A DNA stretch of 64,000 nucleotides from Devosia ginsengisoli. Lineage in GTDB: Bacteria; Pseudomonadota; Alphaproteobacteria; Rhizobiales; Devosiaceae. A program made the translations under genes and the position numbers. The notes under the pieces were generated by a model. That model made no database searches. It worked only from the letters and a program-made list of their open reading frames with translations, and had not been told where the DNA came from. Shown here piece after piece: positions 27,118-44,814 of the stretch. The stretch is taken from assembly GCF_007859655.1 (NCBI RefSeq), contig NZ_CP042304.1, positions 310,001-374,000 of the forward strand, written 5' to 3'. Positions within the stretch are counted from its first letter, which is position 1. The number at the start of each line of letters is the position of its first letter.

Positions 27118-27132
27118 TGCTGACGATGGCGC

Positions 27133-29014: not shown

Positions 29015-29018
29015 CGGT

Positions 29019-30278: not shown

Positions 30279-30381
30279 GGATAGTCCTGAATCTGGTATC
30301 GCCAATCAGCGCGCAAAGCCGGCCGGTCGGCAATGCGACATTCGGCCAGACCGGGCCGATAGGGCAGTTATGTCGCAGGGC

Positions 30382-31506
30382 TCAGCGCTCCATCGCGGCA
30401 ATCAGGCTTCGGCCCAGCGCTTCGCCGCTGCCCCTCGGCCAGCAGAGCCAGAAATTCATGTCGTAGCGCGGCCCGAGCGGCAGTTGCCGCAGGTCACCGC
30501 GGATGCGGGCGACCGAGGCTTGTGGCAGGACCGAGACGAAGCCGTGATGCAGGACCAGATTGAGGATGACCGGGATTGAGTCGATCTCGATCAGCCGGAT
30601 AGCGCTGCGTTCGGCCTCGCCGAGATGATCGTCGAGAATGGTATTGATGCGCTGGCGCAGGCCGCTGCGGGCGCTGGGCACAGCCAGCGGCGCAGCGAGC
30701 AGGGCATCGGCAATGCCGTCGCGGCCCTCGGGCACGCCGACCACCGCCAGAGGTGTGCGGCCGACCACCTCGCCATCGAGATCGGCCGGCAGGTGCTCGG
30801 TATCGAGAAAGGCGACGTCGAACAGGCCCGACTTGAGGCCGGCCATGAGATCCTCGGCGGTGGTGGAGCTGAGGAAGAGCGGCGCGCGCGGGCGCTCGGC
30901 CAGCCAGCGGGCGGTCAGATTGGCGAGGAGACGCGCGATCTCGCTTTCATAGCCTAGAGGAATCACCGAGCCGAGCCGGGCCGTGGCGGCGCTCTTGCGG
31001 AAACGGTCTTCCGAAGCGCGGGAGAGGCGATGCCAGGCGGCGAGCAGGCGTTCGGCCGCGGCGGCGATGCGGGCGCCCTCTGATGTGACGATGGAGCCGC
31101 CACTGCCGCGTTGCAGCAGGGGCGCGCCCAGGGCGGCTTCGAGCTGGGCGATCTGGCGGGTGAGCTGGGGCTGGCCGAGATTGAGGCTGCGGGCGGCGCG
31201 GCGGATGCTGCCCTGACTGGCCACCTGGATGAAGCGGCTGAGCGCTTCGAGCTTGGTGGCGTGGCGGGGCGAAATGCTGCGGGCCAGATCGGCCGCCGCC
31301 GCGATATCGGGTTCGAGCCTGATCGCTTCGAGGCTGACGACGAGCCCGGACCCGGCGCGTTCGACCAGCCGAACCGAGACTTCCGCCTCGAACCGCGCTA
31401 TAGATGCGGCAATGGTAGAGGCGGGGCGGCCCAGGGCGCGGGCAGTGGCGCGGATGCTGCGGGTGTGCAGCACGCTATGCATGGCGATGAGGCTAGCCGT
31501 ATCCAT
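30382..31506 (-). CDS. LysR-family regulator with two N-terminal HTH domains
   Basis: A 374-residue protein starting at 31506 (MDTASLIAMHSVLHTRSIRA). A first LysR-like winged helix occupies about residues 7-60 (IRATARALGRPASTIAASIA), and a second, canonical one follows at about 86-146 (LEALSRFIQVASQGSIRRAA, RSLNLGQPQLTRQIAQLEAA). The effector domain (about 170-374) reads LGSVIPLGYESEIARLLANL onward. Ordinary LysR proteins have one HTH and about 300 residues. It is divergent from the lyase at 31610, with a 12-base palindrome between, so it should control the 31610-43140 genes; the effector may be the imported substrate or an early intermediate. Confidence 0.85.
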   Translation of the reverse strand: MDTASLIAMHSVLHTRSIRATARALGRPASTIAASIARFEAEVSVRLVERAGSGLVVSLEAIRLEPDIAAAADLARSISPRHATKLEALSRFIQVASQGSIRRAARSLNLGQPQLTRQIAQLEAALGAPLLQRGSGGSIVTSEGARIAAAAERLLAAWHRLSRASEDRFRKSAATARLGSVIPLGYESEIARLLANLTARWLAERPRAPLFLSSTTAEDLMAGLKSGLFDVAFLDTEHLPADLDGEVVGRTPLAVVGVPEGRDGIADALLAAPLAVPSARSGLRQRINTILDDHLGEAERSAIRLIEIDSIPVILNLVLHHGFVSVLPQASVARIRGDLRQLPLGPRYDMNFWLCWPRGSGEALGRSLIAAMER

Positions 31507-31567
31507 TGCCCACCATTGCAGCAGGCCGGATGGATGCACAGAAAAACCGCATAGCCTGTTCAGTATT

Positions 31568-31579
31568 TGGGATATCCCA
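31568..31579. promoter_or_regulatory. Palindrome in the regulator/lyase divergent region
   Basis: TGGGATATCCCA is a perfect 12-base palindrome, 31 bases before the lyase ATG and 62 before the LysR ATG. It is a candidate operator. GGATATCCCA also occurs just before mmsA (about 16877-16886), beside another LysR gene, which weakens any claim of specificity. Confidence 0.45.
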
Positions 31580-31609
31580 TGTTTCAAATCTATCCAATAG
31601 CGTGAGGGC

Positions 31610-33169
31610 ATGAACCAACAGGCTCCCACCTTGCATGCAGCGCCCATTACCCTCGACGGCAAGCCGCTGAGCTTTGCCGACATGGTGCGGATCGGCTCGC
31701 GGCGCGTGCCGCTGGCCGCCGACGAGGGCGCGATGCGCCGGGTGGCCGAGGCGCGCAAGGTGGTGGAACAGACCATTGCCAACCACCAGCCGGTCTATGG
31801 CTCGACCACCGGCGTGGGCGCCATGAAGGATGTGGAGTGGACGGACGACCAGCTCGACGCCTTCAATATGGGGCTGGTGCGGGCGCACCATTTCGGCACC
31901 GGCGAGGCCTTTTCCAGCGAGACCGTGCGCGTGGCCATGGCCATCAGGGTCAATATGGCGCTGACCGGGCGGGTGGGCTGCACCACGGACCTGGTGGAGG
32001 CCTATCTGTCGCTGCTGTCGGCCGATGTGGTGCCGGTGGTGCGGCGCACCGGCTCGATCGGCTGCGCCGATATCGGGCTGATGGGGCAGATTGGCGCCGT
32101 GTTGACCGGGGCCGGCGAAGCCATGTTCGACAGCCGCCGCCTGCCGGCCGGCGATGCATTGGCCGCAGCGGGGCTGAAGCCCTTCCGGCTGGCGCCGCGC
32201 GATAGCCTGGCCTCGATTTCGACCAATGCGGTGGGCTATGCCGCCGCCGCCAATGCCATCCGCGAGGCGGCCGGCACGGTGCGCGTCATGCTGGCGACGG
32301 GGCTGACCACGGCCGGAGCGCTGGGCGCCTCGCGCGATCCGTGGAAGGCGGTGGCCCATGTGGGCACCGAGCGCGAAGCCGGCGTCGGCGCCTGGCTCTA
32401 TTTCAACGCCATGGGCTGGGACTGGCCCGACGCGACGCATATCCAGGATCCGCTGAGCCTGCGCATGATGAGCCAGGTGTTCGCCACCGGTTTCGAGACG
32501 CTGGTGGCGGCGGGCAAGATATTGCTGGCGGCGACCGGGCGGACCGACGACAATCCCGTGGTTGCCGGCGGGCAGGTACTGACCTCGGGCGGTTCGCTGC
32601 CGCTCGATGTCACGGTGTTTTTGCAGACGGCGCAACTGGGGCTGGCCCATATCGCGCGCAATTCGTTCAATCGCTGCGTGCTGCTGGGCAATGGCGGGCG
32701 GCGGGGACTGCCGGTCAATCTCGTGCCGCCAGGGGCGATTGCCACCGGCTTCGGACCGATCATCAAGCTGGCCGGGGAGCTGTTTGCCCGCGTGCTGACC
32801 ATGACCAATGCCATCTCGCCCATGTCCATGGTGGTGGCCGGGGGCATCGAGGACGAGGCGGCTTTCCTGCCGCTGGTGGTGGAGCGGCTGGAGCGCCAGG
32901 TGCTGGCTTTGCGGCGCCTGGCGGCGCTTGAGGGGATCCTCGCGGCGCAGGCCATGGACATATCGGGCGATGCCCCCGGCAATGTGCCCGGCATCATCTA
33001 TGCGCTGGTGCGGCGCCATGCTGACACATACTGGCAGGACCGCCCGCTATCGGCGGAAGTGGAAGCTGTCGAACAGGCTCTCGCCTCCGATGGCCTGATG
33101 AACGAACTAATTTCCCATTCAACGATTATGGAGTTGGACGAGTTTTTCGCGCTAGGCCCGGTTGCCTAG
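31610..33169 (+). CDS. Aromatic amino acid lyase-like enzyme lacking the MIO triad; probable ergothionase
   Basis: A 519-residue member of the histidine/phenylalanine ammonia-lyase superfamily. Tyr63 (VYGSTTGVGAM) matches the catalytic loop Tyr, and QDPLSLRMMSQV and TDDNPVV mark the fold. Where true ammonia-lyases have GSxGASGDLAP, the Ala-Ser-Gly that cyclises into the MIO cofactor, this protein has GSIGCADIGLMG (residues 148-159), so it cannot form MIO; the Tyr of QDPYSLR is Leu. Ergothionase, which eliminates trimethylamine from ergothioneine to give thiourocanate, is to my knowledge a MIO-free member of this superfamily, and the downstream genes encode the rest of that pathway. A classical HutH role is therefore unlikely. 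Confidence 0.8.
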   Translation: MNQQAPTLHAAPITLDGKPLSFADMVRIGSRRVPLAADEGAMRRVAEARKVVEQTIANHQPVYGSTTGVGAMKDVEWTDDQLDAFNMGLVRAHHFGTGEAFSSETVRVAMAIRVNMALTGRVGCTTDLVEAYLSLLSADVVPVVRRTGSIGCADIGLMGQIGAVLTGAGEAMFDSRRLPAGDALAAAGLKPFRLAPRDSLASISTNAVGYAAAANAIREAAGTVRVMLATGLTTAGALGASRDPWKAVAHVGTEREAGVGAWLYFNAMGWDWPDATHIQDPLSLRMMSQVFATGFETLVAAGKILLAATGRTDDNPVVAGGQVLTSGGSLPLDVTVFLQTAQLGLAHIARNSFNRCVLLGNGGRRGLPVNLVPPGAIATGFGPIIKLAGELFARVLTMTNAISPMSMVVAGGIEDEAAFLPLVVERLERQVLALRRLAALEGILAAQAMDISGDAPGNVPGIIYALVRRHADTYWQDRPLSAEVEAVEQALASDGLMNELISHSTIMELDEFFALGPVA

Positions 33170-33211
33170 CATCTGGAGCCTCGCCCAATTTCGCCAAAGG
33201 GTTACGTTAGG

Positions 33212-33258
33212 GGCATGATCCGGAAAAGGGACTACCGGTTTTCCGACCAGATCATGCC
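33212..33258. repeat. Rhizobial intergenic palindrome
   Basis: GGCATGAT (33212-33219) and ATCATGCC (33251-33258) bracket an inner dyad CCGGAAAA...TTTTCCG. This element, centred on CCGGAAAAG...ACCGGTTTTCCG, recurs in many Rhizobiales genomes. It lies between the lyase and binding-protein genes, 47 bases before the latter. Confidence 0.85.
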
Positions 33259-33304
33259 AGACAGGGACAGCCGGGTTTGGAGCCCGGAGAAAACGGAGAA
33301 ACCA

Positions 33305-34216
33305 ATGCGCCTCACTTCCACGCTGCTGACCGCCGTTGCTGCGCTCGCCATTTCGATGACCGCTGCGAACGCTCAGGTGGTCGTCTCCTCCAAGATCGAC
33401 ACCGAGGGTGGTGTTCTCGGCAACATCATCAAACAGGTGCTTGAATCCAACGACATTCCGGTCGAGGACCGCATCCAGCTGGGCGGCACGCCCATCGTGC
33501 GCGAAGCCATCACCGCGGGCGAAATCGACATCTATCCGGAATATACCGGCAATGCCGCCTTCTTCTTCGAGAAGGCCGATGACCCGCTGTGGAACAATGC
33601 TGAATCGGCCTATGCCGAAGCGGCCAAGCTGGACTTCGAGGCCAACAAGATCGTCTGGCTGACCCCGTCGCCGGCCAACAATACCTGGGCCGTCGCTATC
33701 CGCAACGACGTGGCCGAGGCCAACAGCCTCAATACGTTCAGCGAATTCGGCGCCTGGGTTGCCGGTGGTGGCGAGGTGAAGCTCGCGGCTTCGGCCGAGT
33801 TCGTGAACTCGCCGGCGGCTTTGCCCAAGTTCCAGGAAGTCTATGGCTTCACGCTCTCGCCCGACCAGCTCGTGACCCTCAGTGGTGGCGATACGGCCGC
33901 GACGATTGCCGCGGCGGCCCAGCAGACCAACGGCGTCAACGCCGCCATGGTCTATGGCACCGATGGCGGTATCGCGCCTTCAGGCCTCAAGGTGCTCGAG
34001 GACGACAAGGGCGTGCAGCCGGTCTACCAGCCCGCGCCCATCATCCGCGAGGAAGTGCTGGCGGAATATCCGCAGATCGAGGAACTGCTGAAGCCGGTGT
34101 TTGAAGGTCTGACGCTGGAAGTGCTGCAGGAACTCAATGGCCGGGTGCAGGTGGGTGGCGAAGCCGCGGCTGCCGTGGCGACGGACTATCTGACCCAGGG
34201 TGGGTTTCTGGAGTAG
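33305..34216 (+). CDS. OsmF/YehZ-type (OpuAC) periplasmic betaine-binding protein
   Basis: A 303-residue exported protein. Start at 33305 gives a 24-residue signal peptide (ending MTAANA-Q). The mature protein is an OpuAC/OsmF-class solute receptor: VVVSSKIDTEGGVLGNIIKQ at the N-terminus, LGGTPIVREAITAGEIDIYP with EYTGNA (the GEID.YPEYTG hallmark), and NGVNAAMVYGTDGGI. This class binds quaternary amines such as glycine betaine and choline, and includes the receptor domain of the ergothioneine importer EgtU. With the lyase upstream and the importer genes downstream, a betaine of histidine (ergothioneine or its S-methyl form) is the likely ligand. Confidence 0.85.
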   Translation: MRLTSTLLTAVAALAISMTAANAQVVVSSKIDTEGGVLGNIIKQVLESNDIPVEDRIQLGGTPIVREAITAGEIDIYPEYTGNAAFFFEKADDPLWNNAESAYAEAAKLDFEANKIVWLTPSPANNTWAVAIRNDVAEANSLNTFSEFGAWVAGGGEVKLAASAEFVNSPAALPKFQEVYGFTLSPDQLVTLSGGDTAATIAAAAQQTNGVNAAMVYGTDGGIAPSGLKVLEDDKGVQPVYQPAPIIREEVLAEYPQIEELLKPVFEGLTLEVLQELNGRVQVGGEAAAAVATDYLTQGGFLE

Positions 34217-34240
34217 GTGAATGGGGTGGGGGGCTCCATA

Positions 34241-34368
34241 CCCCCACCCCCTCCCCTCCCCACAAGGGGGAGGGAAGCCTGTCCGGCGCGCTTGAGGACA
34301 TTGTGCCCATTGCGCGTCGCCCCATCGTCTCCCTCCCCCTTGTGGGGAGGGATCAAGGGTGGGGGTGA
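34241..34368. repeat. Family A palindromic repeat pair
   Basis: CCCCCACCCCCTCCCCTCCC with CACAAGGGGGAGGGA and, after 50 bases, CTCCCTCCCCCTTGTGGGGA with GGGATCAAGGGTGGGGGTGA. It fills the gap between the binding-protein and first permease genes. Confidence 0.88.
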
Positions 34369-34398
34369 GCCTCCGCAAACGCGAAGCCCGGAGCCAGC

Positions 34399-35592
34399 AT
34401 GAGCATCGCCGACACCACAACCATCACATCCCGACCAGCCTGGCTGGCGCTCGACAAGCTGGGCGTGCTGATTGCGCTCATCGCGGCGGCGGGGGCGGCT
34501 TTGCCCTTTGCGCTGTTTCGCGCCAATCGCATCGTGCCGGGCGAGGCGCGGAGCCTGCTCGATGCACTGCCGAGTTTTCCGTCGGGCTTTCTTATCGGTG
34601 TGCTGCTGGTGGGTTTCGCCGTGGCTTTGCTGCGCTTTCCCGCTATCGCCAAGCTGGTGACCGGCTTTGTCGTGCTGGGCTTGCTGTTCGTTTTCATCGG
34701 CTGGTCGGCGACATACCTGACGCCGGAGGGGGACACCTTTGCCCGCGTGTCGCCGGGGGCCGGTTTCTGGCTGCTGGTGTTTGCCTTTGCGCTGCTGGTG
34801 ACCGACGCGCTGACGCGGCTGAAACTCAAGCCGCTGGTGCGGATCGGCATCCTGCTGGTGGTGGCGATTGCCGCGGCCGCCCTGTTGTGGAGCGGGGCGT
34901 GGAACGACCTCTCCATTCTCAAGGAATATGCCAATCGCGCGGCGGCTTTCTGGGCCGAGGCGCGGACGCATCTGGCGCTGGCCTTTGGCTCGGTGGCCAT
35001 TGCGACCGTGGTCGGCATTCCCGTGGGCATCCTCTGCTACAAGGTCAAGCCGCTGCGGGCCGGCGTGCTCAATGTGCTCAATATCGTCCAGACCATTCCG
35101 TCGATTGCCCTGTTCGGCCTGCTCATCGCGCCGCTGGCCTGGGTGGCGGCCAATGTGCCCGGCGCGTCGGCCATCGGCATTTCCGGCATTGGCGTAGCGC
35201 CGGCCATGGTGGCCCTGTTCGCCTATTCGCTGCTGCCCATTGTGTCCAACACGGTGGTTGGGCTGCTCAGCGTGTCTCCATCTGCCGTAGATGCCGCCAA
35301 GGGCATGGGCATGACCGGCACGCAGCGCATGACCGGCGTGGAGCTGCCACTCGCCTTTCCGGTCATCCTCACCGGCATCCGCATCGTGCTGGTGCAGAAT
35401 ATCGGGCTGGCCACCATTGCCGCGCTGATCGGCGGCGGCGGCTTCGGCGTCTTCGTGTTCCAGGGGATCGGGCAGACGGCCATGGACCTGGTGCTGCTCG
35501 GCGCGGTGCCGACGGTGGCCTTGGCTTTCGCCGCCGCCGTGGTGCTGGACGCCGCGGTGGAAATGACATCGCGCGGGGGGCGCAGCGCATGA
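34399..35592 (+). CDS. YehY-type ABC importer permease (long form)
   Basis: A 397-residue permease. The C-terminal half (about 190-397) is a BPD_transp_1 domain with LNIVQTIPSIALFGLLIAPL and the coupling motif AAKGMGMTGTQRMTGVELPL; the N-terminal half adds four or five extra helices, as in E. coli YehY. The order binding protein, long permease, ATPase, short permease is exactly that of yehZYXW. It would form the channel with the second permease at 36521. Its stop overlaps the ATPase start by four bases. Confidence 0.88.
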   Translation: MSIADTTTITSRPAWLALDKLGVLIALIAAAGAALPFALFRANRIVPGEARSLLDALPSFPSGFLIGVLLVGFAVALLRFPAIAKLVTGFVVLGLLFVFIGWSATYLTPEGDTFARVSPGAGFWLLVFAFALLVTDALTRLKLKPLVRIGILLVVAIAAAALLWSGAWNDLSILKEYANRAAAFWAEARTHLALAFGSVAIATVVGIPVGILCYKVKPLRAGVLNVLNIVQTIPSIALFGLLIAPLAWVAANVPGASAIGISGIGVAPAMVALFAYSLLPIVSNTVVGLLSVSPSAVDAAKGMGMTGTQRMTGVELPLAFPVILTGIRIVLVQNIGLATIAALIGGGGFGVFVFQGIGQTAMDLVLLGAVPTVALAFAAAVVLDAAVEMTSRGGRSA

Positions 35593-36524
35593 TCGAGATC
35601 GACGACATCACCAAGAGCTATTCCGGCACGGTCGTGGTGGACCATGTGACCCTGACCATCGAGCCGCGCTCCATCTGCGTCATCGTCGGCACGTCGGGCT
35701 CGGGCAAGACCACTTTGCTGCGGATGATCAACAAGCTGGTGGAGCCGACATCGGGCCATATTCGCATCGATGGCGAGGATATATCAGGCATTCCGGCTTA
35801 TGAGCTGCGGCGGCGGATTGGCTATGCCATCCAGGGGCATGGCCTGTTTCCGCATCGCAGTGTGGGGCAGAATGTGGCGACGGTGCCCAAGCTGCTTGGC
35901 TGGGACAGGAAGAAGATCGCCGAGCGGGTCGATGAACTGCTGAGCCTGTTCCAACTCGACCCCGGCGAATTCCGTGACCGGCTGCCGCATGAGCTTTCCG
36001 GCGGCCAGCAGCAGCGCGTCGGCGTGGCGCGGGCGCTGGCGGCTTCACCCAACATCCTGCTGATGGACGAGCCCTATGGCGCGCTCGACCCTGTCATCCG
36101 CGCCAAGGCGCAGGAGGACCTGCTGTCCATCCAGCGCAAGATGGGCACGACCGTCGTGCTGGTGACGCATGACATGGAAGAGGCGATCCATCTCGGCGAC
36201 ACCATCGCCGTGATGGACAAGGGCAAGCTGCTGCAATGCGCCAGGCCCGCAGAGATCATCGCCAATCCGGCGACGCCGTTTGTGGCCGAGCTGATCGGCA
36301 CCAGCGAACGACCGTTCCGGCTGCTGTCGCTGGCGAAAGTAGCCGATCATATCGAGGCGGGCGAGGGGGCGGGTGAGCCGATCGAGGCCGGTGCTTCGCT
36401 GCGTGACGCCTATGCCGAATTGCTGTGGTCGGGCCGGCCGGCTTTGCCGGTGCGGCGGGATGGGCAGATTGTCGGGCAGGTGACGCTGGCCGCGCTGTCG
36501 CGGCTGGCGGCGAGGCCGCAATGA
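35589..36524 (+). CDS. OpuCA/YehX-type ABC importer ATPase
   Basis: A 311-residue ATPase starting MIEIDDITKSYSG at 35589 inside the preceding stop. Walker A is GTSGSGKTT, the Q-loop IGYAIQGHGLFPHRSVGQNV is that of the osmoprotectant class, the signature is LSGGQQQRVGVARAL and Walker B ILLMDEPYGALD. The C-terminal 60 residues resemble one degenerate CBS repeat (SLRDAYAELLWSGRPALPVR), shorter than the tandem CBS of OpuCA, so ionic-strength gating is doubtful. It should drive import through the flanking permeases. Confidence 0.9.
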   Translation: MIEIDDITKSYSGTVVVDHVTLTIEPRSICVIVGTSGSGKTTLLRMINKLVEPTSGHIRIDGEDISGIPAYELRRRIGYAIQGHGLFPHRSVGQNVATVPKLLGWDRKKIAERVDELLSLFQLDPGEFRDRLPHELSGGQQQRVGVARALAASPNILLMDEPYGALDPVIRAKAQEDLLSIQRKMGTTVVLVTHDMEEAIHLGDTIAVMDKGKLLQCARPAEIIANPATPFVAELIGTSERPFRLLSLAKVADHIEAGEGAGEPIEAGASLRDAYAELLWSGRPALPVRRDGQIVGQVTLAALSRLAARPQ

Positions 36525-37273
36525 AGATTGGCAATGTCATCAGACTGGCGGCGCTGGTCGTGCTGGTCTTGTTGCTGGTGCGGCCGGAGCTGTTCTCGGG
36601 CTTTTTCGGGCTATTCACCAAGAACAACCAGCCGGCGATCTACAACCAGGGCAATCTGCTCGATATCACGCTGAACCATCTGGCCATCGTGCTGGCGGCG
36701 ACGGTGGCGTCCACTGTCATCGCGGTGGGGCTGGCCATTATCGTGACGCGGCCGTTTGGCGCCGAATTCCTGCCGCTGTCGCGCTCGCTCGCCAATATCG
36801 GGCAGACCTTTCCGCCGGTGGCGGTGCTGGCGCTGGCCGTGCCCATGCTGGGCTTCGGCACGGCGCCGACTTTGGTGGCCCTGTTCCTCTATGGGCTGCT
36901 GCCGATTTTCGAGAACACGCTGACCGGACTGACCAACCTGCCGCCGGCGGTGACTGACGCCGCCAAGGGCGTGGGCATGACGGGATGGCAGCGACTGCTC
37001 AAGGTGGAACTGCCGCTGGCTTTGCCTGTGATCCTGGCCGGGATACGGCTCTCGGTGGTGATTTCGCTGGCCACCGCGACCATTGGGTCGACCGTGGCGG
37101 CGCGGACGCTGGGCGAGGTGATCATCGCCGGGCTGCTGTCGAGCAATACGGCGTTTGTGCTGCAGGGCGGGCTGATCGTCGGCGTGCTGGCGGTGCTGAT
37201 CTATGACGCGCTGTCGGCGCTGGAACGGTGGCTGATGGCGCGGACCGGGCAATTGGGGAGGACGGCGGCTTGA
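36521..37273 (+). CDS. YehW-type ABC importer permease (short form)
   Basis: A 250-residue permease with about six helices. BPD_transp_1 features: SLANIGQTFPPVAVLALAVP, YGLLPIFENTLTGLTNLPPA and the EAA-like coupling loop DAAKGVGMTGWQRLLKVELP. A loop after the first helix (FTKNNQPAIYNQGNLLDITL) faces the periplasm. It overlaps the ATPase gene by four bases, completing a tightly coupled three-gene block. It heterodimerises with the long permease at 34399 (inference from the yehZYXW parallel). Confidence 0.88.
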   Translation: MKIGNVIRLAALVVLVLLLVRPELFSGFFGLFTKNNQPAIYNQGNLLDITLNHLAIVLAATVASTVIAVGLAIIVTRPFGAEFLPLSRSLANIGQTFPPVAVLALAVPMLGFGTAPTLVALFLYGLLPIFENTLTGLTNLPPAVTDAAKGVGMTGWQRLLKVELPLALPVILAGIRLSVVISLATATIGSTVAARTLGEVIIAGLLSSNTAFVLQGGLIVGVLAVLIYDALSALERWLMARTGQLGRTAA

Positions 37274-37279
37274 CTATTG

Positions 37280-37412
37280 AGTACCCGACCTCGTGGTTCG
37301 AGGCTCGTGAAGAACTCGCACCTCACCATGAGGTCTCCCGGAATACCGCGCTCGCAGTAGCCCTCATGGTGAGGCGCGAGCGCAGCGACCCTCGAACCAC
37401 GAGGGCGTGGCA
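37280..37412. repeat. Inverted repeat (family G), long copy
   Basis: CCTCGTGGTTCGAGGCTCGT with CTCACCATGAGG on the left and CCTCATGGTGAGGCGCGAGC with CCCTCGAACCACGAGGGCGT on the right. It separates the transporter block from the hydantoinase-like gene. Confidence 0.85.
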
Positions 37413-37437
37413 GGACAGTCGTCGGGGGAACTGAAAA

Positions 37438-38796
37438 ATGTCCGATTTCGATCTCGTCCTGTCCGGCACCGTGGTGCTGCCCGATCTGGTGGTGGAGAAC
37501 GGCTATGTGGCCGTGCGCGATGGCAAGGTCGTGCATGTGGGGGAGGGCATTGCGCCCCATGCGCATGAGCGGCATGAACTGGGCAATGCGCTGATCCTGC
37601 CGGGGGCCATCGATGCGCAGACCCATTCGCTGAGCCAGAAGGACCAGGAGGATTTCATCTGGTCGACGCGCTCGGCGGCGGCCGGCGGCGTCACCACCAT
37701 TGTCGACATGCCTTATGATGAGGGGAATCTGGTGTGTTCCGCCGAGGCGGTGCGCAAGAAAGTGGCGCATGCCGAGCCGCAAGCGCGGGTGGATTTCGCG
37801 CTTTATGGCACGATCAACCCTGAAGAGGGCGCCAGCCGGATTGCCGAGCAGGACGAGGCGGGTGTCGCGGCGTTCAAGTTTTCCACTTTTGGAACGGACC
37901 CGGTGCGCTTTCCGCGCATTCCGCCGGCTCTGCTGGAGGAATGCTTTGCCGCCGTGGCCAAGACCGGGCTGACGGCCGGCGTGCATAACGAGGACGACGA
38001 AATGGTCCGTGCCGCCATGGCCAAGGTGAAGGCGGCTGGCATTACCGACTATCGGGCGCATGCGCTGAGCCGGCCGCCGCTGACCGAATTGCTGGCCTCG
38101 TTGCAGATTTATGAGACCGGGGCGCAGACGGGGTGCCCGGCGCATGTGGTGCATTGTTCGCTGGGGCGCGGCTACGAGATCGCGCTGAGCTATCGCGAGC
38201 AGGGCTATGCCGCCACCATCGAGGCCTGCATTCACTACCTCACGTTGGACGAGGAGAACGACGTCGCGCGGCTGGGCGGCAAGGCCAAGATCAATCCGCC
38301 GATCCGGCCGCGGGCCGAGGTGGAAAAGCTGTGGGAGCATGTGCGGGCGGGCAATGTGTCGCTGGTTTCGACCGACCATGTGAGTTGGTCGGAAAACCGC
38401 AAGACCAATCCCGACATGCTGGCCAATGCGTCCGGCGTGCCGGGGCTGGAAGTCATGGTGCCGCTTTTCGTCATGGGGGCGTTGAAGCGGGGAATTTCGC
38501 TGACCTGGGCGGCCAAGCTGATGGCGGAAAATCCGGCGCGGCATTTCCGGCTCGACCATGCCAAGGGCGCGCTGACGCCGGGGCGGGACGCCGATATCGC
38601 GGTGTTGTTTCCCCGGTCCATGCGCTACGACGCGGCGGCGAGCGGGCACAATGTGGTGGGCTGGTCGCCGTATAACGGGATCGAACTGCCCTGGACTGTG
38701 GGGTTGACCTATCTGCGTGGGCGGCAGGTGTTCGACGGGACCAATGTGGCGCAGCCGGGGACGGGGCGGTTTGTGCGGCCGGGGGTGAAGCACTGA
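37438..38796 (+). CDS. Hydantoinase/dihydropyrimidinase-like cyclic amidohydrolase
   Basis: A 452-residue amidohydrolase of the dihydropyrimidinase/allantoinase group. The PGAIDAQTH segment replaces the first His of the usual HxH metal pair by Gln; the other expected features are present: AAFKFSTFG (candidate carbamylated Lys), GVHNEDDE, HVVHCS and LVSTDHVSW (metal Asp and proton relay). It would open a five-membered hydantoin ring; in ergothioneine catabolism this gives N-carbamoylglutamate from hydantoin-5-propionate. It sits immediately before the carbamoyl-hydrolase gene that would use that product. Allantoinase is an alternative, but no other purine gene is nearby. Confidence 0.82.
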   Translation: MSDFDLVLSGTVVLPDLVVENGYVAVRDGKVVHVGEGIAPHAHERHELGNALILPGAIDAQTHSLSQKDQEDFIWSTRSAAAGGVTTIVDMPYDEGNLVCSAEAVRKKVAHAEPQARVDFALYGTINPEEGASRIAEQDEAGVAAFKFSTFGTDPVRFPRIPPALLEECFAAVAKTGLTAGVHNEDDEMVRAAMAKVKAAGITDYRAHALSRPPLTELLASLQIYETGAQTGCPAHVVHCSLGRGYEIALSYREQGYAATIEACIHYLTLDEENDVARLGGKAKINPPIRPRAEVEKLWEHVRAGNVSLVSTDHVSWSENRKTNPDMLANASGVPGLEVMVPLFVMGALKRGISLTWAAKLMAENPARHFRLDHAKGALTPGRDADIAVLFPRSMRYDAAASGHNVVGWSPYNGIELPWTVGLTYLRGRQVFDGTNVAQPGTGRFVRPGVKH

Positions 38797-38810
38797 TGCT
38801 TGGTGCCCAA

Positions 38811-38941
38811 AATACCCCCACCCTCATTCCCTCCCCACAAGGGGGAGGGAAGCCCGGCCGGTGCGATGCTGACATTGTGCCACGGAGCGATCCCCCATCG
38901 TCTCCCTCCCCCTTGTGGGGAGGGATCAAGGGTGGGGGTAT
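38811..38941. repeat. Family A palindromic repeat pair
   Basis: CCCCCACCCTCATTCCCTCC with CCACAAGGGGGAGGGA and, after about 65 bases, CTCCCTCCCCCTTGTGGGGA with GGGATCAAGGGTGGGGGTA. The G-rich tail ends about eight bases before the next ATG and can act as its ribosome site. Confidence 0.88.
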
Positions 38942-38947
38942 CTCGCC

Positions 38948-40201
38948 ATGATCCCCAATTCCCCCATAAGCACCAATCGGATCTCGTCCGATATCGATGC
39001 GCTGGCCCTTATCACTGAGCCGGGGCGGCCTTACACGCGGCGGGCGTTTACGCCGTTGTTTCTCGAAGGCCGCAAGTGGCTGGAACAGGCCATGCGCGAG
39101 GCCGGGGCGGTGACACGGGTGGATGCGGCGGGGAACCTGGTGGGGACCATTCCGGGCAAAAGGCCGGAGCTGGGCACGATCATGCTGGGCTCGCATTCCG
39201 ATACCGTGCCCGATGGCGGGCGGTTCGATGGCATTGCCGGAGTGGTGGTGGCGCTGGAAGTAGCGCGGGCTTTGCGCGACCAGGGCGTGGTGCTGGAGCA
39301 TACGCTCGAAGTGGTGGATTTCCTGGCCGAGGAAGTGTCCATTTTCGGCGTGTCCTGCATCGGTAGCCGCGGCATGAGCGGTACGCGGCCGGCCGAATGG
39401 CTGGCGCGGGAAAGCGATGGGCTAACGCTGGAGCAGGGGATTGCGCAGGTGGGCGGCGACGTGCGCCTGCCGGCGCAGCGCGACGACATCAAGGCGTTTC
39501 TTGAACTGCATATCGAGCAGGGGCCGGTGCTGCAGGATCAGCAACTCGATGTGGGCGTGGTGACGGCAATAGCCGGGATCACGCGGATCGAGATTATCGT
39601 GGACGGACGGGCCGACCATGCGGGGACGACGCCGATGGGGTCGCGCAAGGATGCGCTGACCACGGCGGCGTGGATTGCGCTGGGCGTCGAGGAATTGGGC
39701 AAGGCCCTGGCCAGTGGCGCGGCGCATTTTGCCGCCACTGTGGGCGAATTCGAGATGTCGCCCAATGCGGCCAATGTGGTGCCGGCGCGGGTGCGCATGC
39801 TGATCGATGCGCGGGCGGAACTGCGCGACGACATGGAGCGGTTCGTCGACGAACTCGACAAGGGCGTGGCCGCGATTGCCGAGAAGACCGGCGTGACCGT
39901 GTCGGAGCCGCGCATTGTGTCTGACAATCCACCGACGCCCTGCGATGCCGGGCTGCTCGATGTGCTTGATGCGGCCTGCGACAGCGCGGGCGCAAGGCAT
40001 CGGCGCATGGCGTCGGGGGCGGGGCATGACACGGCGTGGATGGCACGGATTACCAGGGCGGCGATGATCTTCGTGCCCTGCAAGGATGGGCGTAGCCATT
40101 CGGCGGATGAATTCGCCACGACGGAAGATATCGCGCTGGGCGCGGCTGTGCTGCTGGACGCCGTGCGGGCGCTGGATGTGAAATTGCAGGAGACTGGATA
40201 A
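38948..40201 (+). CDS. M20-family N-carbamoyl-amino acid/ureidopropionate amidohydrolase
   Basis: A 417-residue dinuclear-metal hydrolase of the HyuC/AllC/beta-ureidopropionase branch of M20. Metal-site motifs: MLGSHSDTVPDGGRFDGIAG (His and bridging Asp), DFLAEEVSIFG (Glu pair), FLELHIEQGPVLQ (His), and the distal KDGRSHSADEFA. The dimer lid region has RADHAGTTPMGSRKDALTTA. Start at 38948 directly after the repeat tail. It would remove the carbamoyl group from N-carbamoylglutamate, releasing glutamate, CO2 and ammonia as the last pathway step. It overlaps the DUF917 gene by one base. Confidence 0.88.
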   Translation: MIPNSPISTNRISSDIDALALITEPGRPYTRRAFTPLFLEGRKWLEQAMREAGAVTRVDAAGNLVGTIPGKRPELGTIMLGSHSDTVPDGGRFDGIAGVVVALEVARALRDQGVVLEHTLEVVDFLAEEVSIFGVSCIGSRGMSGTRPAEWLARESDGLTLEQGIAQVGGDVRLPAQRDDIKAFLELHIEQGPVLQDQQLDVGVVTAIAGITRIEIIVDGRADHAGTTPMGSRKDALTTAAWIALGVEELGKALASGAAHFAATVGEFEMSPNAANVVPARVRMLIDARAELRDDMERFVDELDKGVAAIAEKTGVTVSEPRIVSDNPPTPCDAGLLDVLDAACDSAGARHRRMASGAGHDTAWMARITRAAMIFVPCKDGRSHSADEFATTEDIALGAAVLLDAVRALDVKLQETG

Positions 40202-41334
40202 TGGGGCGCATTCTCACCGAAAAGGATGTGGAGGCGGCTGTGCGCGGCGGCTCTGTCTATGCGGCGGGCGGTGGCGGCTGGGCCGACCATGGCCGCATGC
40301 TGGGCACGGCGGCGGTGCGCATCGGCCAGCCGGAACTGGTTGATATAGAGGAACTGGACGCGGATGACTGGGTGGCGACGGCGGCCGCCATCGGCGCCCC
40401 GGCTTCGACCACGCCCTGGGAAATGCGCGGGGTGGATTACATCAAGGCCGTGCAATTGTTGCAGGACGCGCTGGGCGAGAAGCTGAGCGGGCTGATGATC
40501 GGGCAGAATGGCAAGTCATCGACGCTGAATGGCTGGCTGCCGGCGGCCGCTTTGGGGCTCAAGGTGGTGGATGCGGTGGGCGATATTCGCGCGCATCCGA
40601 CGGGCGATATGGGGTCCATCGGCATGGCTGGGTCGCCCGAGCAGATGATCCAGACGGCGGTGGGCGGCAATCGGGAAGAGAACCGCTATATCGAACTGGT
40701 GACGCGCGGGGCGACGGCGAAGGTGTCGCCCATTTTGCGCACGGCGGCGGATATGTCGGGCGGGTTTATTGCCTCGTGCCGCAATCCGCTGCGGGCGAGC
40801 TATGTGAAGCAGCATGCGGCTCTGGGCGGAATTTCGCTGGCGCTGAAGCTCGGCGAGGCGATGATCGCGGCCGAGGGCAAGGGGCCGGGCAAGATGATCG
40901 ACGCCATCGTGGAGACGACGGGCGGGGTGATCCTGACCAAGGGCTACATCACGGATATCGACGTGACCTATACCAAGGAGGCGTTCGATATCGGCCGCAT
41001 CACCGTGGGCGAGGGCGATAATGCGACCACGCTGCATGTGATGAACGAATATATGGCGGTGGAGGATGCCGGCGGCACAAGGCTGGCGACTTTTCCCGAT
41101 GTGCTGACCACGCTGGATGCGGCGGGGCAGGCGCTGTCGGTGGGGCAACTGGGGCGTGGCATGTATGTGTTTGTGCTGCATGTTCCCAAGACGGGGATTC
41201 CCCTGAGTTCGAGTGTGCTGGATCCGGCGGTTTATCCATTTGTCGAGGAGCGGATGGGGATTGAGCTGGCGAAATATGCGCTGGAGAGCGTGACGCAAGA
41301 AGCTGGCCCATCCACGGTGTCACCCCGGCCTTGA
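40201..41334 (+). CDS. DUF917 (S-methyl-thiohydantoin desulfurase-like) protein
   Basis: A 377-residue DUF917 protein. The N-terminal SVYAAGGGGWADHGRMLG and ELDADDWVATAAAIGAP, and the central VDAVGDIRAHPTGDMGSIGM, are typical; a smaller beta domain follows (GKMIDAIVETTGGVILTKGY). To my knowledge this family is now linked to desulfuration of S-methyl-thiohydantoins, and ergothioneine catabolism needs a desulfurase between the hydratase and the hydantoinase. By position and by elimination this gene fills that step. Whether H2S or methanethiol is released decides between ergothioneine and its S-methyl form. Its last codons lie in a palindromic repeat. It is cytosolic. Confidence 0.78.
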   Translation: MGRILTEKDVEAAVRGGSVYAAGGGGWADHGRMLGTAAVRIGQPELVDIEELDADDWVATAAAIGAPASTTPWEMRGVDYIKAVQLLQDALGEKLSGLMIGQNGKSSTLNGWLPAAALGLKVVDAVGDIRAHPTGDMGSIGMAGSPEQMIQTAVGGNREENRYIELVTRGATAKVSPILRTAADMSGGFIASCRNPLRASYVKQHAALGGISLALKLGEAMIAAEGKGPGKMIDAIVETTGGVILTKGYITDIDVTYTKEAFDIGRITVGEGDNATTLHVMNEYMAVEDAGGTRLATFPDVLTTLDAAGQALSVGQLGRGMYVFVLHVPKTGIPLSSSVLDPAVYPFVEERMGIELAKYALESVTQEAGPSTVSPRP

Positions 41335-41443
41335 GCCGGGGCCTATCCTGAGATCGACCCGCGGCCGCAAGGTCGATCAGTCAAACACCTTGCGGCAAAA
41401 CAGAAATCTCAAGATGGATCCCGGCTCAAGGCCGGGATGACAT
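41319..41443. repeat. Palindrome family F, copy interrupted by a second palindrome
   Basis: The outer arms (GTCACCCCGGCCTTGAGCCG and CCCGGCTCAAGGCCGGGATG) match the copy at 22307, but the centre GAGATCTC is split by about 50 bases. That insert has its own stem, GCCGCAAGGT (41364-41373) and ACCTTGCGGC (41387-41396). It lies between DUF917 and the urocanase-like gene. Confidence 0.8.
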
Positions 41444-41478
41444 CGAGTGTTTTGTGCCTCCGGAGAAGGAGCCTAAAA

Positions 41479-43140
41479 ATGCCCACACCCAATCCCCGCC
41501 ACCCCAACTTCCCCCATCCCCGGCGGGCCCGAGCTCCGCGCGAAAGGCTGGCGGCAGGAGGCGCTTTGCGGCTGCTGGAGAATGTGCTGGCGGTGGGGGA
41601 GAATCCGGACGAGCTGGTAGTCTATGCGGCGCTGGGCAAGGCGGCACGGAACTGGGCGGCGCATAAGGGGATCGTGGAAGCGCTGTTGGATATGGATGAG
41701 GACCAGACGTTGGTGATCCAGTCGGGTAAGCCGATCGGGCTGCTGAAGACGCATGCCAAGGCGCCGCTGGTGATCATGGCCAATTGCAACATTGTCGGGC
41801 AATGGGCGAAGGCCGAGGTGTTTTATGAGCTGGAGAAAAAGGGGCTGATCTGTTGGGGCGGGCTGACGGCCGGGGCGTGGCAGTATATCGGCTCACAGGG
41901 GGTCATTCAGGGTACGTATGAGATTTTCATGCGCATTGCCGAGAACCGCTTCGGTGGCTCGCTGGCGGGGCGGTTCATCCTGACGGCGGGGCTGGGCGGC
42001 ATGGGCGGGGCGCAGCCGCTGGCCGGGCGCATGGCGGGGGCGGCGATATTGTGTGTCGACATCGATGCCGAACGCGCAAGAAAGCGGCAGGATGTGGGGT
42101 ATCTGGAGGAGATTGCGCCGGACCTCGATACGGCTTTAGCGATGATCGACAAGGCAGTGGCGGAGAAGCGGGCGACGTCCATCGGGCTGGTGGGCAATGC
42201 GGCGGAGATTTATCCCGAGATTGCTAGGCGCGGCATCGTGCCCGACATTGTGACCGACCAGACTTCGGCGCATGATCTTGTTTATGGCTATGTGCCCAAG
42301 GGGATGAGCCTCGATGAGGTGAAGCGCCTGCGGGTCGAGGGGCCGGGGCAGTTGATGGCGGCGAGCCGGGCATCGATCGTCGATCATGTGCGGGCCATGC
42401 TGGCTTTCCAGCAGGCGGGCAGCGAGGTGTTCGACAATGGCAATCTGATCCGCACCCATGCCAAGGCGGGTGGGGTGGAGAATGCCTTCGATATCAAGAT
42501 TTTCACCGAGGCGTATCTGCGGCCGCTGTTTGCGCGGGCGATCGGGCCGTTCCGCTGGATGGCGCTGTCGGGCGACCCTGAGGATATCAGGAAGATCGAC
42601 GACAAATTGCTGGAGATGTTTCCGGACAACCGGATCGTCACCAACTGGATTTCCCTGGCGCGGCAGCATGTGCCGTTTGAGGGGCTGCCGGCTCGGATTG
42701 CCTGGCTGGGGCATGGCGAGCGGTCGGCTTTGGCGCGGGCGGTGAATGCTATGGTGGCCGATGGGACCCTGGCCGGGCCGGTGGCGTTCAGCCGCGACCA
42801 TCTCGATGCCGGGGCCATGGCGCATCCCAATATCATGACCGAGCGGATGAAGGACGGGTCGGACGCCATTGCCGATTGGCCGATCCTCGATGCGATGCTG
42901 CTGTGCTCGTCCATGGCAGACCTGGTGGTGGTCCATTCGGGCGGCGGGGGCTATGCGGGCTATATGACGTCAGCGGGGGTGACGGTGGTGGCCGACGGCA
43001 CGCCGGGGGGCGATGAGCGGCTGGAGCATGCGCTGACCAATGACACGGCGCTGGGCGTGATGCGTTATGCCGATGCGGGGTATGACGAGAGTTTCGAGGA
43101 GATTGCGGCCAAGGGGATTGGGCATATCGCGGTGGGGTGA
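41479..43140 (+). CDS. Urocanase-like enzyme without the active-site Cys; probable thiourocanate hydratase
   Basis: A 553-residue protein of the urocanase (HutU) family. It has WGGLTAGAWQYIGSQG, the NAD-binding TAGLGGMGGAQPLAGRM, DQTSAHDLVYGYVP, GPFRWMALSGDPEDI and SRDHLDAGAMAHPN. In urocanases the signature FQGLPxRICW contains the active-site Cys; here it reads FEGLPARIAWLGHGER, with Ala. The HHGGGVGMG loop is also altered, to VHSGGGGYAGYM. Both changes fit a specialised hydratase acting on thiourocanate, or its S-methyl form, made by the lyase at 31610. Start at 41479 with AAGGAG upstream. It is the last gene of the island. Confidence 0.82.
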   Translation: MPTPNPRHPNFPHPRRARAPRERLAAGGALRLLENVLAVGENPDELVVYAALGKAARNWAAHKGIVEALLDMDEDQTLVIQSGKPIGLLKTHAKAPLVIMANCNIVGQWAKAEVFYELEKKGLICWGGLTAGAWQYIGSQGVIQGTYEIFMRIAENRFGGSLAGRFILTAGLGGMGGAQPLAGRMAGAAILCVDIDAERARKRQDVGYLEEIAPDLDTALAMIDKAVAEKRATSIGLVGNAAEIYPEIARRGIVPDIVTDQTSAHDLVYGYVPKGMSLDEVKRLRVEGPGQLMAASRASIVDHVRAMLAFQQAGSEVFDNGNLIRTHAKAGGVENAFDIKIFTEAYLRPLFARAIGPFRWMALSGDPEDIRKIDDKLLEMFPDNRIVTNWISLARQHVPFEGLPARIAWLGHGERSALARAVNAMVADGTLAGPVAFSRDHLDAGAMAHPNIMTERMKDGSDAIADWPILDAMLLCSSMADLVVVHSGGGGYAGYMTSAGVTVVADGTPGGDERLEHALTNDTALGVMRYADAGYDESFEEIAAKGIGHIAVG

Positions 43141-43160
43141 GGGGTTCAGTGCTTGTGGCT

Positions 43161-43288
43161 TACCCCCACCCTCACTCCCTCCCCACAAGGGGGAGGGAAG
43201 CCTGCTCCGTGGCTAAACCATCATTGGAACACTGACGCGGCCCATGCGCCTCCCTCCCCTTGATGGGGAGGGATTGAGGGTGGGGTGG
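43161..43288. repeat. Family A palindromic repeat pair
   Basis: CCCCCACCCTCACTCCCTCC with CCACAAGGGGGAGGGA and GCCTCCCTCCCCTTGATGGG with GAGGGATTGAGGGTGGGG. It lies between the convergent urocanase-like and receiver-domain genes and may act as a transcription end. Confidence 0.85.
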
Positions 43289-43310
43289 GGCCATAGGCGC
43301 TATTCTGCGA

Positions 43311-43862
43311 TTAGCCCTCGAGCCCCGGATGCCTTGGTTTGCGGCGGTCGGGAAACAGCGGGATGACGTTGTCGGTCGCCCGTCTTGTTGGCACGGGATA
43401 CGGCTTGGGCAGGGGCGCGCGGTTGCGGCGGTCGGGGCCGCGATAGCCTCCGAGGACGCCGACGACGCTGCGGGTGCGCAGGCGGGCCTGGATGCGCTGC
43501 AGCAGGTGGCGCGGCGACATCGGCTTGATGATGACTTCGTCGATCCCGGCACTAATGGCCTGGTGGCGCATGGGCGGGGTGATGGTGCGGGTGAGCGCGA
43601 TGACCGGCACGTCCTGGCTGATCAGGTCATTGTTGAGACGGATCGATTCGACCATTTCATAGGCCGGGCGGCCGTCGCGATCGAAATCGCAGACCAGCAT
43701 ATCGAGCGGGGCGATGCGCATATAGGCGATGAGCTCGATATCGCTTTCGAACTGGCGCACCTTGAGGTGCGAGTCGCCGGCCACCACCATCGCCAGGAGC
43801 GACGACAGCGCAGTATTGGCCGCAATAATGGCAACGACCTTGGTCGGCTCTGACACTGACAT
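43311..43862 (-). CDS. Single-domain response regulator-like protein
   Basis: A 183-residue protein. Residues 1-125 form a receiver-like domain: VVAIIAANTALSSLLAMVVA, DMLVCDFDRDG with the candidate phospho-Asp, VPVIALTRTI with the conserved Thr, and DEVIIKPMSPRHLLQRI with the Lys-Pro. The tail has YRGPDRRNRAPLPK, a basic motif seen in many rhizobial receiver proteins, and no DNA-binding domain. Start at 43862 (GGGGG upstream); a longer in-frame start would read through a terminator and a repeat. The acidic pocket after strand 1 is poor, so phosphorylation is uncertain. No cognate kinase is adjacent. Confidence 0.8.
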   Translation of the reverse strand: MSVSEPTKVVAIIAANTALSSLLAMVVAGDSHLKVRQFESDIELIAYMRIAPLDMLVCDFDRDGRPAYEMVESIRLNNDLISQDVPVIALTRTITPPMRHQAISAGIDEVIIKPMSPRHLLQRIQARLRTRSVVGVLGGYRGPDRRNRAPLPKPYPVPTRRATDNVIPLFPDRRKPRHPGLEG

Positions 43863-43963
43863 CCCCCGGATAGTAAATGAAGCGTTACCATGGGGAAATG
43901 TCGGGAAGAAGAGGCCGGTTCCCGAAATGGATAATGGCTGGGGGAAAATACCGATGCGGGTAT

Positions 43964-43989
43964 GAAAAAGCCCGCCGGAGGGCGGGCTT
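43964..43989 (-). terminator. Rho-independent terminator of the superoxide dismutase gene
   Basis: AAGCCCGCC (43968-43976) and GGCGGGCTT (43981-43989) pair perfectly around GGAG; on the minus strand the stem is followed by TTTCAT with five T in all. It ends minus-strand transcription arriving from sod. Confidence 0.88.
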
Positions 43990-44003
43990 GGATGGAGTCC
44001 TTG

Positions 44004-44125: not shown

Positions 44126-44133
44126 GCCAGAAA

Positions 44134-44742: not shown

Positions 44743-44814
44743 TATGGCCTCCGATTTTGGGATAGACGCTGAGGATAGCGGCCTTGGTATAGGCCGTTTC
44801 GATAGTGGCAACAA

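What the first reader, a model, noticed from the sequence alone, without database searches (positions are those of the whole stretch)
30382..43140. Complete candidate island for uptake and catabolism of ergothioneine or S-methyl-ergothioneine
Seen: a MIO-less aromatic lyase homologue, a urocanase homologue without its active-site Cys, a DUF917 protein, a hydantoinase-like enzyme, an M20 carbamoyl-amidohydrolase, a betaine-class ABC importer and a LysR regulator, all contiguous. Known: a five-step bacterial pathway turns ergothioneine into glutamate, trimethylamine, sulfide, CO2 and ammonia, using relatives of the first two histidine-degradation enzymes, a new desulfurase and two hydrolases resembling the last enzymes of uracil catabolism; DUF917 has been linked to S-methyl-thiohydantoin desulfuration. 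Inferred: the same pathway operates here, with its own importer and regulator in one block. The substrate form (free thiol or S-methyl) and the importer-plus-regulator combination are what may be new.
Basis: partly seen in the sequence, partly recalled or inferred. Interest (0 to 1): 0.92.

Follow-up and report, generated by a model that had tools for sequence, protein, structure and literature searches.

The report
Ergothioneine breakdown island with its regulator
A soil bacterium carries a complete, already known set of genes for eating the sulfur-containing fungal compound ergothioneine, and comparison with relatives adds a likely dedicated switch protein, its DNA landing site and a likely uptake system.

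Summary
In detail: ten contiguous genes (30382-43140) encode a LysR regulator, a MIO-less aromatic lyase, a four-gene betaine-class ABC importer, a hydantoinase-like amidohydrolase, an M20 hydrolase, a DUF917 protein and a Cys-less urocanase homologue. The catabolic part is the known five-step ergothioneine pathway: four of five enzymes pass NCBIfam cut-offs and the S-methyl models are not met, so the substrate is most likely free ergothioneine. That part is not new. The comparison adds regulation. The LysR protein has two LysR-type DNA-binding domains in tandem; in Devosiaceae it was found in 22 of 136 genomes, all 22 ert-positive. TGGGATAT lies upstream of the lyase in 49 of 49 LysR-bearing loci. 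In five of five rhizobia tested whose ert cluster lacks the LysR gene, a relative lies elsewhere, divergent from the same type of importer, with a related site. Against a dedicated importer: the same operon stands alone in many ert-less Devosiaceae, and linked and unlinked binding proteins interleave on the tree. Importer ligand, LysR effector and all enzyme activities are untested.

The parts
30382..31506 (-). LysR-type regulator with two tandem LysR-type winged HTH domains (proposed regulator of the ert genes)
   Evidence: Pfam HTH_1 in two stretches plus LysR_substrate; AF2 model, mean pLDDT 88.4, helix-helix-helix-strand-strand-helix at 3-78 repeated at 86-168; found only in ert-positive Devosiaceae
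31558..31579 (+). Proposed operator: GTTC-N9-GATATCCC (31558-31578) with the 12-bp palindrome TGGGATATCCCA (31568-31579)
   Evidence: Core TGGGATAT upstream of ErtA in 49 of 49 LysR-bearing loci; long form 49 hits in 2.44 Mb of loci, all beside LysR, ErtA or binding-protein starts, but only 6 of the 49 LysR-bearing ErtA junctions have it in full; TTTGGGATATNNCA has one exact copy in the genome, this one
31610..33169 (+). ErtA: ergothionase-like, MIO-less aromatic lyase (ergothioneine to thiourocanate + trimethylamine)
   Evidence: Best solved match is T. denticola ergothionase 6s7j, 175 bits against 125 for histidine ammonia-lyase 1gkj; no MIO Ser and Lys386 kept in 66 of 66 homologues aligned; hutH model far below cut-off
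33305..34216 (+). OsmF-type substrate-binding protein
   Evidence: NF049931 495 bits, cut-off 400
34399..35592 (+). ABC permease 1
   Evidence: PF00528; best NCBIfam matches are choline/betaine permeases, below cut-off
35589..36524 (+). ABC ATPase, ProV-like
   Evidence: PF00005; TIGR01186 276 bits, below its cut-off 326.6
36521..37273 (+). ABC permease 2
   Evidence: PF00528
37438..38796 (+). ErtD: hydantoin-5-propionate amidohydrolase
   Evidence: NF058538 780.4 bits, cut-off 600
38948..40201 (+). ErtE: N-carbamyl-L-glutamate amidohydrolase (M20)
   Evidence: NF058540 587.5 bits, cut-off 520; the plain Zn-hydrolase model NF009531 scores higher, 641.9
40201..41334 (+). ErtC: thiohydantoin desulfurase (DUF917, now S-Me-THD-like)
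   Evidence: NF058529 588.4 bits, cut-off 440; S-methyl model 290, cut-off 450, not met
41479..43140 (+). ErtB: thiourocanate hydratase (urocanase homologue, Cys replaced by Ala)
   Evidence: NF058530 1019.4 bits, cut-off 930; S-methyl model 715.1, cut-off 880, not met; RIAWLG

Best explanation
The island takes up and degrades free ergothioneine by the known five-step route. An OsmF-type ABC importer brings in ergothioneine (inferred). ErtA eliminates trimethylamine without a MIO cofactor to give thiourocanate; ErtB hydrates it; ErtC removes sulfur; ErtD opens hydantoin-5-propionate; ErtE releases glutamate from N-carbamoyl-glutamate (step names from the family models and the published pathway as recalled; activities inferred). 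A LysR-type protein with two tandem DNA-binding domains, encoded divergently from ErtA, most likely senses a pathway compound and controls the divergent promoter through the conserved GATATCCC-containing site (inferred from conservation). In some rhizobia a relative of this regulator would control the importer beside it and, from about 120-130 kb away, the ert genes.
For: Scores over cut-off for ErtB, ErtC, ErtD and ErtE. ErtA best matches T. denticola ergothionase; of 66 complete ErtA homologues aligned, 66 lack the MIO Ser and 66 keep a Lys that ergothionase has and histidine ammonia-lyase lacks. Same gene order ErtA-D-E-C-B in Devosia, Rhizobium, Ensifer and Shinella loci. No second aromatic lyase, no second urocanase-family match and no EgtD match in the 4.48-Mb genome. 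LysR in 22 of 136 Devosiaceae, all 22 among the 50 ert-positive ones (up to 14 candidates scored per genome). At order level, 20 of 23 LysR-bearing genomes also pass the ErtC cut-off (3 more distant matches set aside) and the other three have ErtD beside LysR. TGGGATAT upstream of ErtA in 49 of 49 LysR-bearing loci, shuffled mean 0.165. Rhizobia without LysR beside ErtA keep the site (11 of 11) and the 5 tested all have a LysR relative elsewhere; 6 of 6 Devosia tested without LysR beside ErtA have none. In those 5 rhizobia it is divergent from the importer, with GTTC-N9-GATATCCC between.
Against: No activity, binding or expression was measured. ErtA has no family model of its own in NCBIfam. 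The importer exists without ert in many Devosiaceae and its ert-linked binding proteins form no clade, so it may serve betaines in general. Of 15 importer-bearing loci without LysR, 14 also lack the core site, and 28 of 50 ert-positive Devosiaceae showed no LysR at the threshold used, so the regulator is dispensable. The long form of the site is complete in only 6 of 49 LysR-bearing ErtA junctions; 26 of 49 have GTTC-N9-GATAT and 49 of 49 GT-N11-GATAT. The importer junctions in rhizobia read AAGATATCCC, not TGGGATATCCC. Of 91 relaxed matches, 17 lie away from these starts. The site was defined after looking at these related sequences.
Confidence: 0.8

Rival explanations
1. The importer is a general osmoprotectant (glycine betaine class) transporter that merely sits in the same place; ergothioneine enters by another route.
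For: NCBIfam names the binding protein OsmF. Importer binding protein in 44 of 86 Devosiaceae genomes without an ErtB over cut-off. Of 18 unlinked places read, 16 carry the whole four-gene operon without ErtA beside it. Linked and unlinked binding proteins interleave on the tree and one alignment column separates them by my criterion.
Against: Within 15 kb of ErtB in 37 of 50 ert-positive Devosiaceae; it is the only match of its kind in this genome; in 5 of 5 rhizobia examined it is paired with a relative of the ert regulator and a related site.
Confidence: 0.35
2. The island degrades S-methyl-ergothioneine.
For: The DUF917 relatives include S-methyl-thiohydantoin desulfurases, hence the Pfam name S-Me-THD.
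Against: Both S-methyl NCBIfam models are below cut-off while the thiol models pass. ErtB scores 782 bits with 7ned and 568 with 8q9u/8q9v, and shares with 7ned the QTSAHD and HSGGGGYAGYMTSAG stretches that 8q9u lacks; that 8q9u/8q9v are the S-methyl enzyme is recalled.
Confidence: 0.05
3. The substrate is another 2-substituted histidine betaine, such as ergothioneine sulfonate.
For: A bacterial ergothioneine sulfonate pathway is in print (Yan 2022, title seen only in the reference list of PMC13405746) and would share the trimethylamine-lyase and late hydrolase steps (recalled).
Against: ErtB and ErtC pass the thiourocanate hydratase and thiohydantoin desulfurase cut-offs.
Confidence: 0.08
4. 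Ordinary histidine degradation (Hut).
For: Same superfamilies; the hutU model TIGR01228 passes its cut-off for ErtB, 664 bits against 375.
Against: MIO Ser and urocanase Cys both absent; thiouroc_hyd scores much higher than hutU; hutH below cut-off, 204 against 539 bits.
Confidence: 0.02

Closest known systems
Five-step bacterial ergothioneine catabolism (Beliaeva, Leisinger and Seebeck 2021, ACS Chem Biol 16:397; title seen in the reference list of PMC9732360)
   Same: All five enzyme types, thiol branch; NCBIfam names ErtD and ErtE
   Different: Here an importer sits inside the cluster and a tandem-HTH LysR with a conserved site precedes it; the paper itself was not read, so whether it mentions these is not known
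Ergothionase of Treponema denticola (6s7j, 6s7q)
   Same: MIO-less aromatic lyase, shared Lys
   Different: Distant (175 bits over about 490 residues)
OsmF/YehZ glycine betaine importers (NF049931; 4nd9, 5teu, 4wep)
   Same: Binding protein passes the OsmF cut-off; operon of binding protein, permease, ATPase, permease
   Different: Often embedded in ert clusters, or paired with a relative of the ert LysR
EgtU ergothioneine importer of Firmicutes (7txk, 7txl; PMC9732360, passages read)
   Same: Same superfamily of osmoprotectant binding domains, 97-104 bits
   Different: Separate binding protein, not a permease-fused domain; specificity residues not aligned
LysR-type regulators (CbnR, BenM, OxyR)
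   Same: C-terminal effector domain and second HTH; best fold matches
   Different: An extra LysR-type winged HTH with linker helix at the N terminus

Membership tests
Five-step ergothioneine catabolic pathway | Thiourocanate hydratase over NCBIfam cut-off | tested here: met
   1019.4 bits, cut-off 930
Five-step ergothioneine catabolic pathway | Thiohydantoin desulfurase over cut-off | tested here: met
   588.4 bits, cut-off 440
Five-step ergothioneine catabolic pathway | ErtD and ErtE over cut-off | tested here: met
   780.4 (600) and 587.5 (520) bits
Five-step ergothioneine catabolic pathway | MIO-less ergothionase-type lyase | tested here: met
   No MIO Ser and invariant Lys386 in 66 of 66 homologues aligned; best solved match is ergothionase. 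NCBIfam returned no ergothionase model to test against
Five-step ergothioneine catabolic pathway | Enzyme activities on ergothioneine and intermediates | not testable with these tools
   Needs bench work
S-methyl-ergothioneine branch | S-methyl thiourocanate hydratase and S-methyl thiohydantoin desulfurase over cut-off | tested here: not met
   715.1 against 880 and 290 against 450 bits
OsmF importers | OsmF equivalog cut-off | tested here: met
   495 bits, cut-off 400
Ergothioneine-specific importers (EgtU) | Permease fused to the binding domain | tested here: not met
   Binding protein and two permeases are separate genes
Ergothioneine-specific importers (EgtU) | Ergothioneine binding | not testable with these tools
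   Needs a binding assay
LysR-type regulators | LysR HTH and LysR substrate-binding domain | tested here: met
   PF00126 and PF03466 in 42 of 42 members of alignment A1 at E up to 0.01
Histidine ammonia-lyase | MIO-forming Ser and hutH cut-off | tested here: not met
   GSIGCADIG; 203.8 bits against 539.15

The most novel reading that the evidence does not exclude
Hyphomicrobiales use a dedicated ergothioneine regulator, a LysR-type protein with two tandem DNA-binding domains reading an extended operator around GATATCCC, to co-ordinate an OsmF-type importer that is an ergothioneine importer with the catabolic genes, either in one block (Devosia, Martelella) or in trans from about 120-130 kb away (some Rhizobium).
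Probability: 0.5. Interest if true: 0.55.

Novelty: new member of a known kind. Interest (0 to 1): 0.42.

Why it matters
Ergothioneine is made by fungi and actinobacteria and acquired by plants and animals (start of the abstract of PMC7653990, listing). The pathway for its breakdown is known, but the titles and abstract starts listed by my searches of the held open-access library named no regulator of it and no importer in ergothioneine-degrading Proteobacteria (the 9 papers were not opened). The regulator, site and importer named here can each be tested directly, and the regulator could serve as an ergothioneine-responsive sensor if its effector is confirmed.

Tried and rejected
Ordinary Hut pathway: rejected on missing MIO Ser, missing Cys and family scores. 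S-methyl substrate: rejected on cut-offs. Importer specialised for ergothioneine by sequence: I looked for columns where one residue is in over 80% of 19 ert-linked and under 35% of 18 unlinked binding proteins and found one; a specialised clade is not supported. Trimethylamine assimilation through gamma-glutamylmethylamide synthetase: the type III glutamine synthetase model gives no match over its cut-off; that this model covers that enzyme is recalled, and the fate of trimethylamine is not traced. Sigma-70 promoter scan of 30300-43400: none found, shuffles mean 2.0. Rfam: no match in 28000-46000. Wider regulon in the genome: TTTGGGATATNNCA has one exact match; with one mismatch 4 matches against 6 for the reversed control. 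Literature on tandem-HTH LysR proteins: 458 papers held two of the terms, 20 were listed, none of those titles or abstract starts reports such a protein; passages of PMC5882156 (12 of 16 places) named none. Subscription papers are not held, so priority is not established. EgtU specificity residues were read as passages but not aligned to the window protein.
Full report
What is there. The window lies in a 4.48-Mb single-contig genome. In the scan of named genomes its closest relative is a Devosia ginsengisoli MAG (ErtC 98% identical), so it is taken as a Devosia and its unnamed family group as Devosiaceae. From 30382 to 43140 there are ten genes: a LysR regulator on the minus strand, then on the plus strand ErtA, a four-gene ABC importer (binding protein, permease, ATPase, permease), ErtD, ErtE, ErtC and ErtB. 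The importer sits between ErtA and ErtD.

Which pathway. NCBIfam has curated models for ergothioneine enzymes. ErtB passes thiourocanate hydratase (1019.4 bits, cut-off 930), ErtC thiohydantoin desulfurase (588.4, 440), ErtD NF058538 (780.4, 600) and ErtE NF058540 (587.5, 520; a plain Zn-hydrolase model scores higher, 641.9). The S-methyl models of ErtB and ErtC are not met (715.1 against 880; 290 against 450). ErtA met no ergothionase model; its best solved match is T. denticola ergothionase (175 bits; histidine ammonia-lyase 1gkj 125). Of 75 loci with an ErtA match over at least 70% of its length, 66 complete proteins passed my script's length and stop filters and were aligned; in 66 of 66 the MIO stretch reads GSIGCADIG, GSMGCADIG or GSIGTADIG, with no MIO Ser, and Lys386 is invariant. 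T. denticola ergothionase has Lys at that column and histidine ammonia-lyase does not. ErtB reads RIAWLG where urocanase 1x87 reads RICWLG. The five-step pathway was published in 2021 (title seen as reference 63 in PMC9732360; paper not read). The catabolic part is therefore a new member of a known kind.

The genome. There is one aromatic lyase, one urocanase-family match and one match to the binding protein, all in the island; no EgtD match; no type III glutamine synthetase over cut-off. The organism would thus degrade ergothioneine taken from outside and appears to lack HutH and HutU.

Distribution. The thiohydantoin desulfurase model passes its cut-off in 32 of 397 genomes of the order. One scan of named genomes gave 385 stretches encoding ErtC relatives, of which the best 80 became loci. 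Where the whole cluster is in view the order is ErtA-D-E-C-B in Devosia, Rhizobium, Ensifer, Shinella and others. Among these 80 loci the importer lies between ErtA and ErtD only in Devosia and one Martelella; Rhizobium, Ensifer and Shinella clusters have ErtA next to ErtD.

Importer. Of 136 Devosiaceae genomes, 50 have ErtB over cut-off and 90 have the binding protein at E up to 1e-60. Of the 50, 37 have it within 15 kb of ErtB, 1 far away on the same contig, 8 on another contig and 4 not at all; 44 genomes have it without an ErtB over cut-off, 3 of these with fragmentary ErtB hits. I read 20 places, chosen from those that looked unlinked: 2 (L149, L150) have ErtA beside the binding protein; of the other 18, 16 carry the whole four-gene operon without ErtA beside it. 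Fifteen of those 18 lie in genomes with no ErtB over cut-off. In L145 the operon lies beside a relative (65%) of the gene that borders the island at 29019-30305 (DUF3422 by recall, not scanned), with no LysR or ErtA match. A tree of 19 linked and 18 unlinked binding proteins interleaves the two groups, and one column separates them by my criterion. So the importer looks like an older betaine-class transporter; either the ert genes came to flank it or they were lost around it, more than once.

Regulator. The LysR protein is 374 residues and its relatives in the loci 374-424 by my start choice. Pfam finds HTH_1 in two stretches of the window protein. A profile built from the second HTH finds the N-terminal domain in 42 of 48 relatives at E below 0.01 for a search space of one; 4 more are listed below that and 2 not at all. 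The AlphaFold2 model (42 sequences, mean pLDDT 88.4, pTM 0.59) shows helices 3-15, 18-25, 29-43, two strands and a long helix 59-78, and the same order again at 86-168. The best fold matches are ordinary LysR proteins such as CbnR. In Devosiaceae 22 of 136 genomes have this LysR at E up to 1e-50 (at most 14 candidates scored per genome, so absences are not certain); all 22 are among the 50 ert-positive ones, 21 on the same contig as ErtB within 12 kb and 1 on another contig. At order level 26 of 397 match at E up to 1e-25 (only 4 candidates scored per genome). Setting aside three distant ones (G207, G288, G294, E 2e-27 to 4e-26, themselves beside ErtC or ErtA), 20 of 23 pass the ErtC cut-off, and the other three have ErtD beside LysR. 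Of the 26, I read the 24 new loci: LysR lies beside an ert gene in 18, beside the OsmF binding protein in 5, and in 1 beside a different ABC importer that is followed by ErtD-C-B.

Site. The divergent LysR-ErtA intergenic regions share a motif. TGGGATAT occurs in the 400 bases upstream of ErtA (plus 30 inside) in 49 of 49 loci with LysR beside ErtA; shuffled sequences gave a mean of 0.165 and at most 2. Of 26 loci without LysR beside ErtA, 12 have it: 11 of 11 rhizobial loci and 1 of 15 importer-bearing, Devosia-type loci. This led to a prediction: genomes that keep the site should have the regulator elsewhere. I tested 11 of the 26: 5 of 5 rhizobia have one LysR relative (36-37% identical) elsewhere, 6 of 6 Devosia have none at E up to 1e-20; here all or all but one of the candidates were scored. 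In those 5 rhizobia the gene is divergent from a binding protein-permease-ATPase-permease operon whose binding protein is 65-68% identical to the window's. In 4 of the 5 the contig length shows it to be the ert contig, about 120-130 kb from ErtC if both coordinate systems run the same way. The junction there carries a spaced form shared with the window, GTTC-N9-GATATCCC, but with AAGATATCCC in place of TGGGATATCCC. The spaced form occurs 49 times in 2.44 Mb of fetched sequence (at most 41 distinct places, since 8 hits are repeat fetches), 49 of 49 within 450 bp of the start of LysR, ErtA or the binding protein, against 0.18 expected from base composition. It is not universal: of the 49 LysR-bearing ErtA junctions 6 have it in full, 26 have GTTC-N9-GATAT and 49 have GT-N11-GATAT; of 91 matches to the relaxed GTTC-N9-GATAT, 17 lie away from these starts; among the four regions fetched last, none has the full form. 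The patterns were chosen after seeing the sequences and the loci are related, so these figures are descriptive. In the whole genome the 14-base form TTTGGGATATNNCA is found exactly once, at the island; with one mismatch the reversed control gives more (6 against 4), so no wider regulon is visible.

Judgement. Regulator, site and catabolic genes belong together with good confidence; the importer probably serves ergothioneine here but is not exclusive to ert-bearing genomes. Effector, direction of control and ligand are inferred.

Unexplained. In 16 representative loci ErtA falls into two groups 49-54% identical to each other while ErtB across the same groups is 82-92% identical; for example L060 and L058 share 92% in ErtB and 53% in ErtA. 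This looks like replacement of the first enzyme; why is open.

Noticed in passing
window 37274-37437: Long imperfect palindrome between permease 2 and ErtD (-86 kcal/mol, z -6.4); its piece CCTCACCATGAGG has six matches in the window with up to one mismatch (two of them the two arms here) against 0.15 expected, and exact copies in four other Devosia-group loci: a repeat family that may split the operon.
   Followed up: partly
L042, L058, L060 and relatives: Two ErtA groups 49-54% identical beside 82-92% identical ErtB: likely gene replacement of the lyase.
   Followed up: partly
L198, L199, L200: Variant clusters with the LysR and ErtD (76%), no ErtB or ErtC match at 1e-5 in the 20 kb read, and a distant aromatic lyase (26-27% to ErtA): perhaps a sister pathway for another substrate.
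   Followed up: partly
L201 9749-18309: LysR, then a different ABC importer operon, then ErtD, ErtC, ErtB, with no ErtA match in the region: importer type varies between ert clusters.
   Followed up: no
L042 686-4202: In Rhizobium herbae a carnitine 3-dehydrogenase (over cut-off) and a relative of keto-acid cleavage enzymes (below cut-off) lie beside the ert regulator.
   Followed up: no
window 23419-28685: Upstream neighbour is a sugar-type ABC importer (PF13407, PF00005, PF02653), followed in relatives by a small protein resembling rhamnose mutarotase (name recalled).
   Followed up: no
window 44134-49703: Downstream neighbours look like a superoxide dismutase, a prolyl oligopeptidase-type peptidase and a large Na+/H+ antiporter subunit (read by eye, not scanned).
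   Followed up: no
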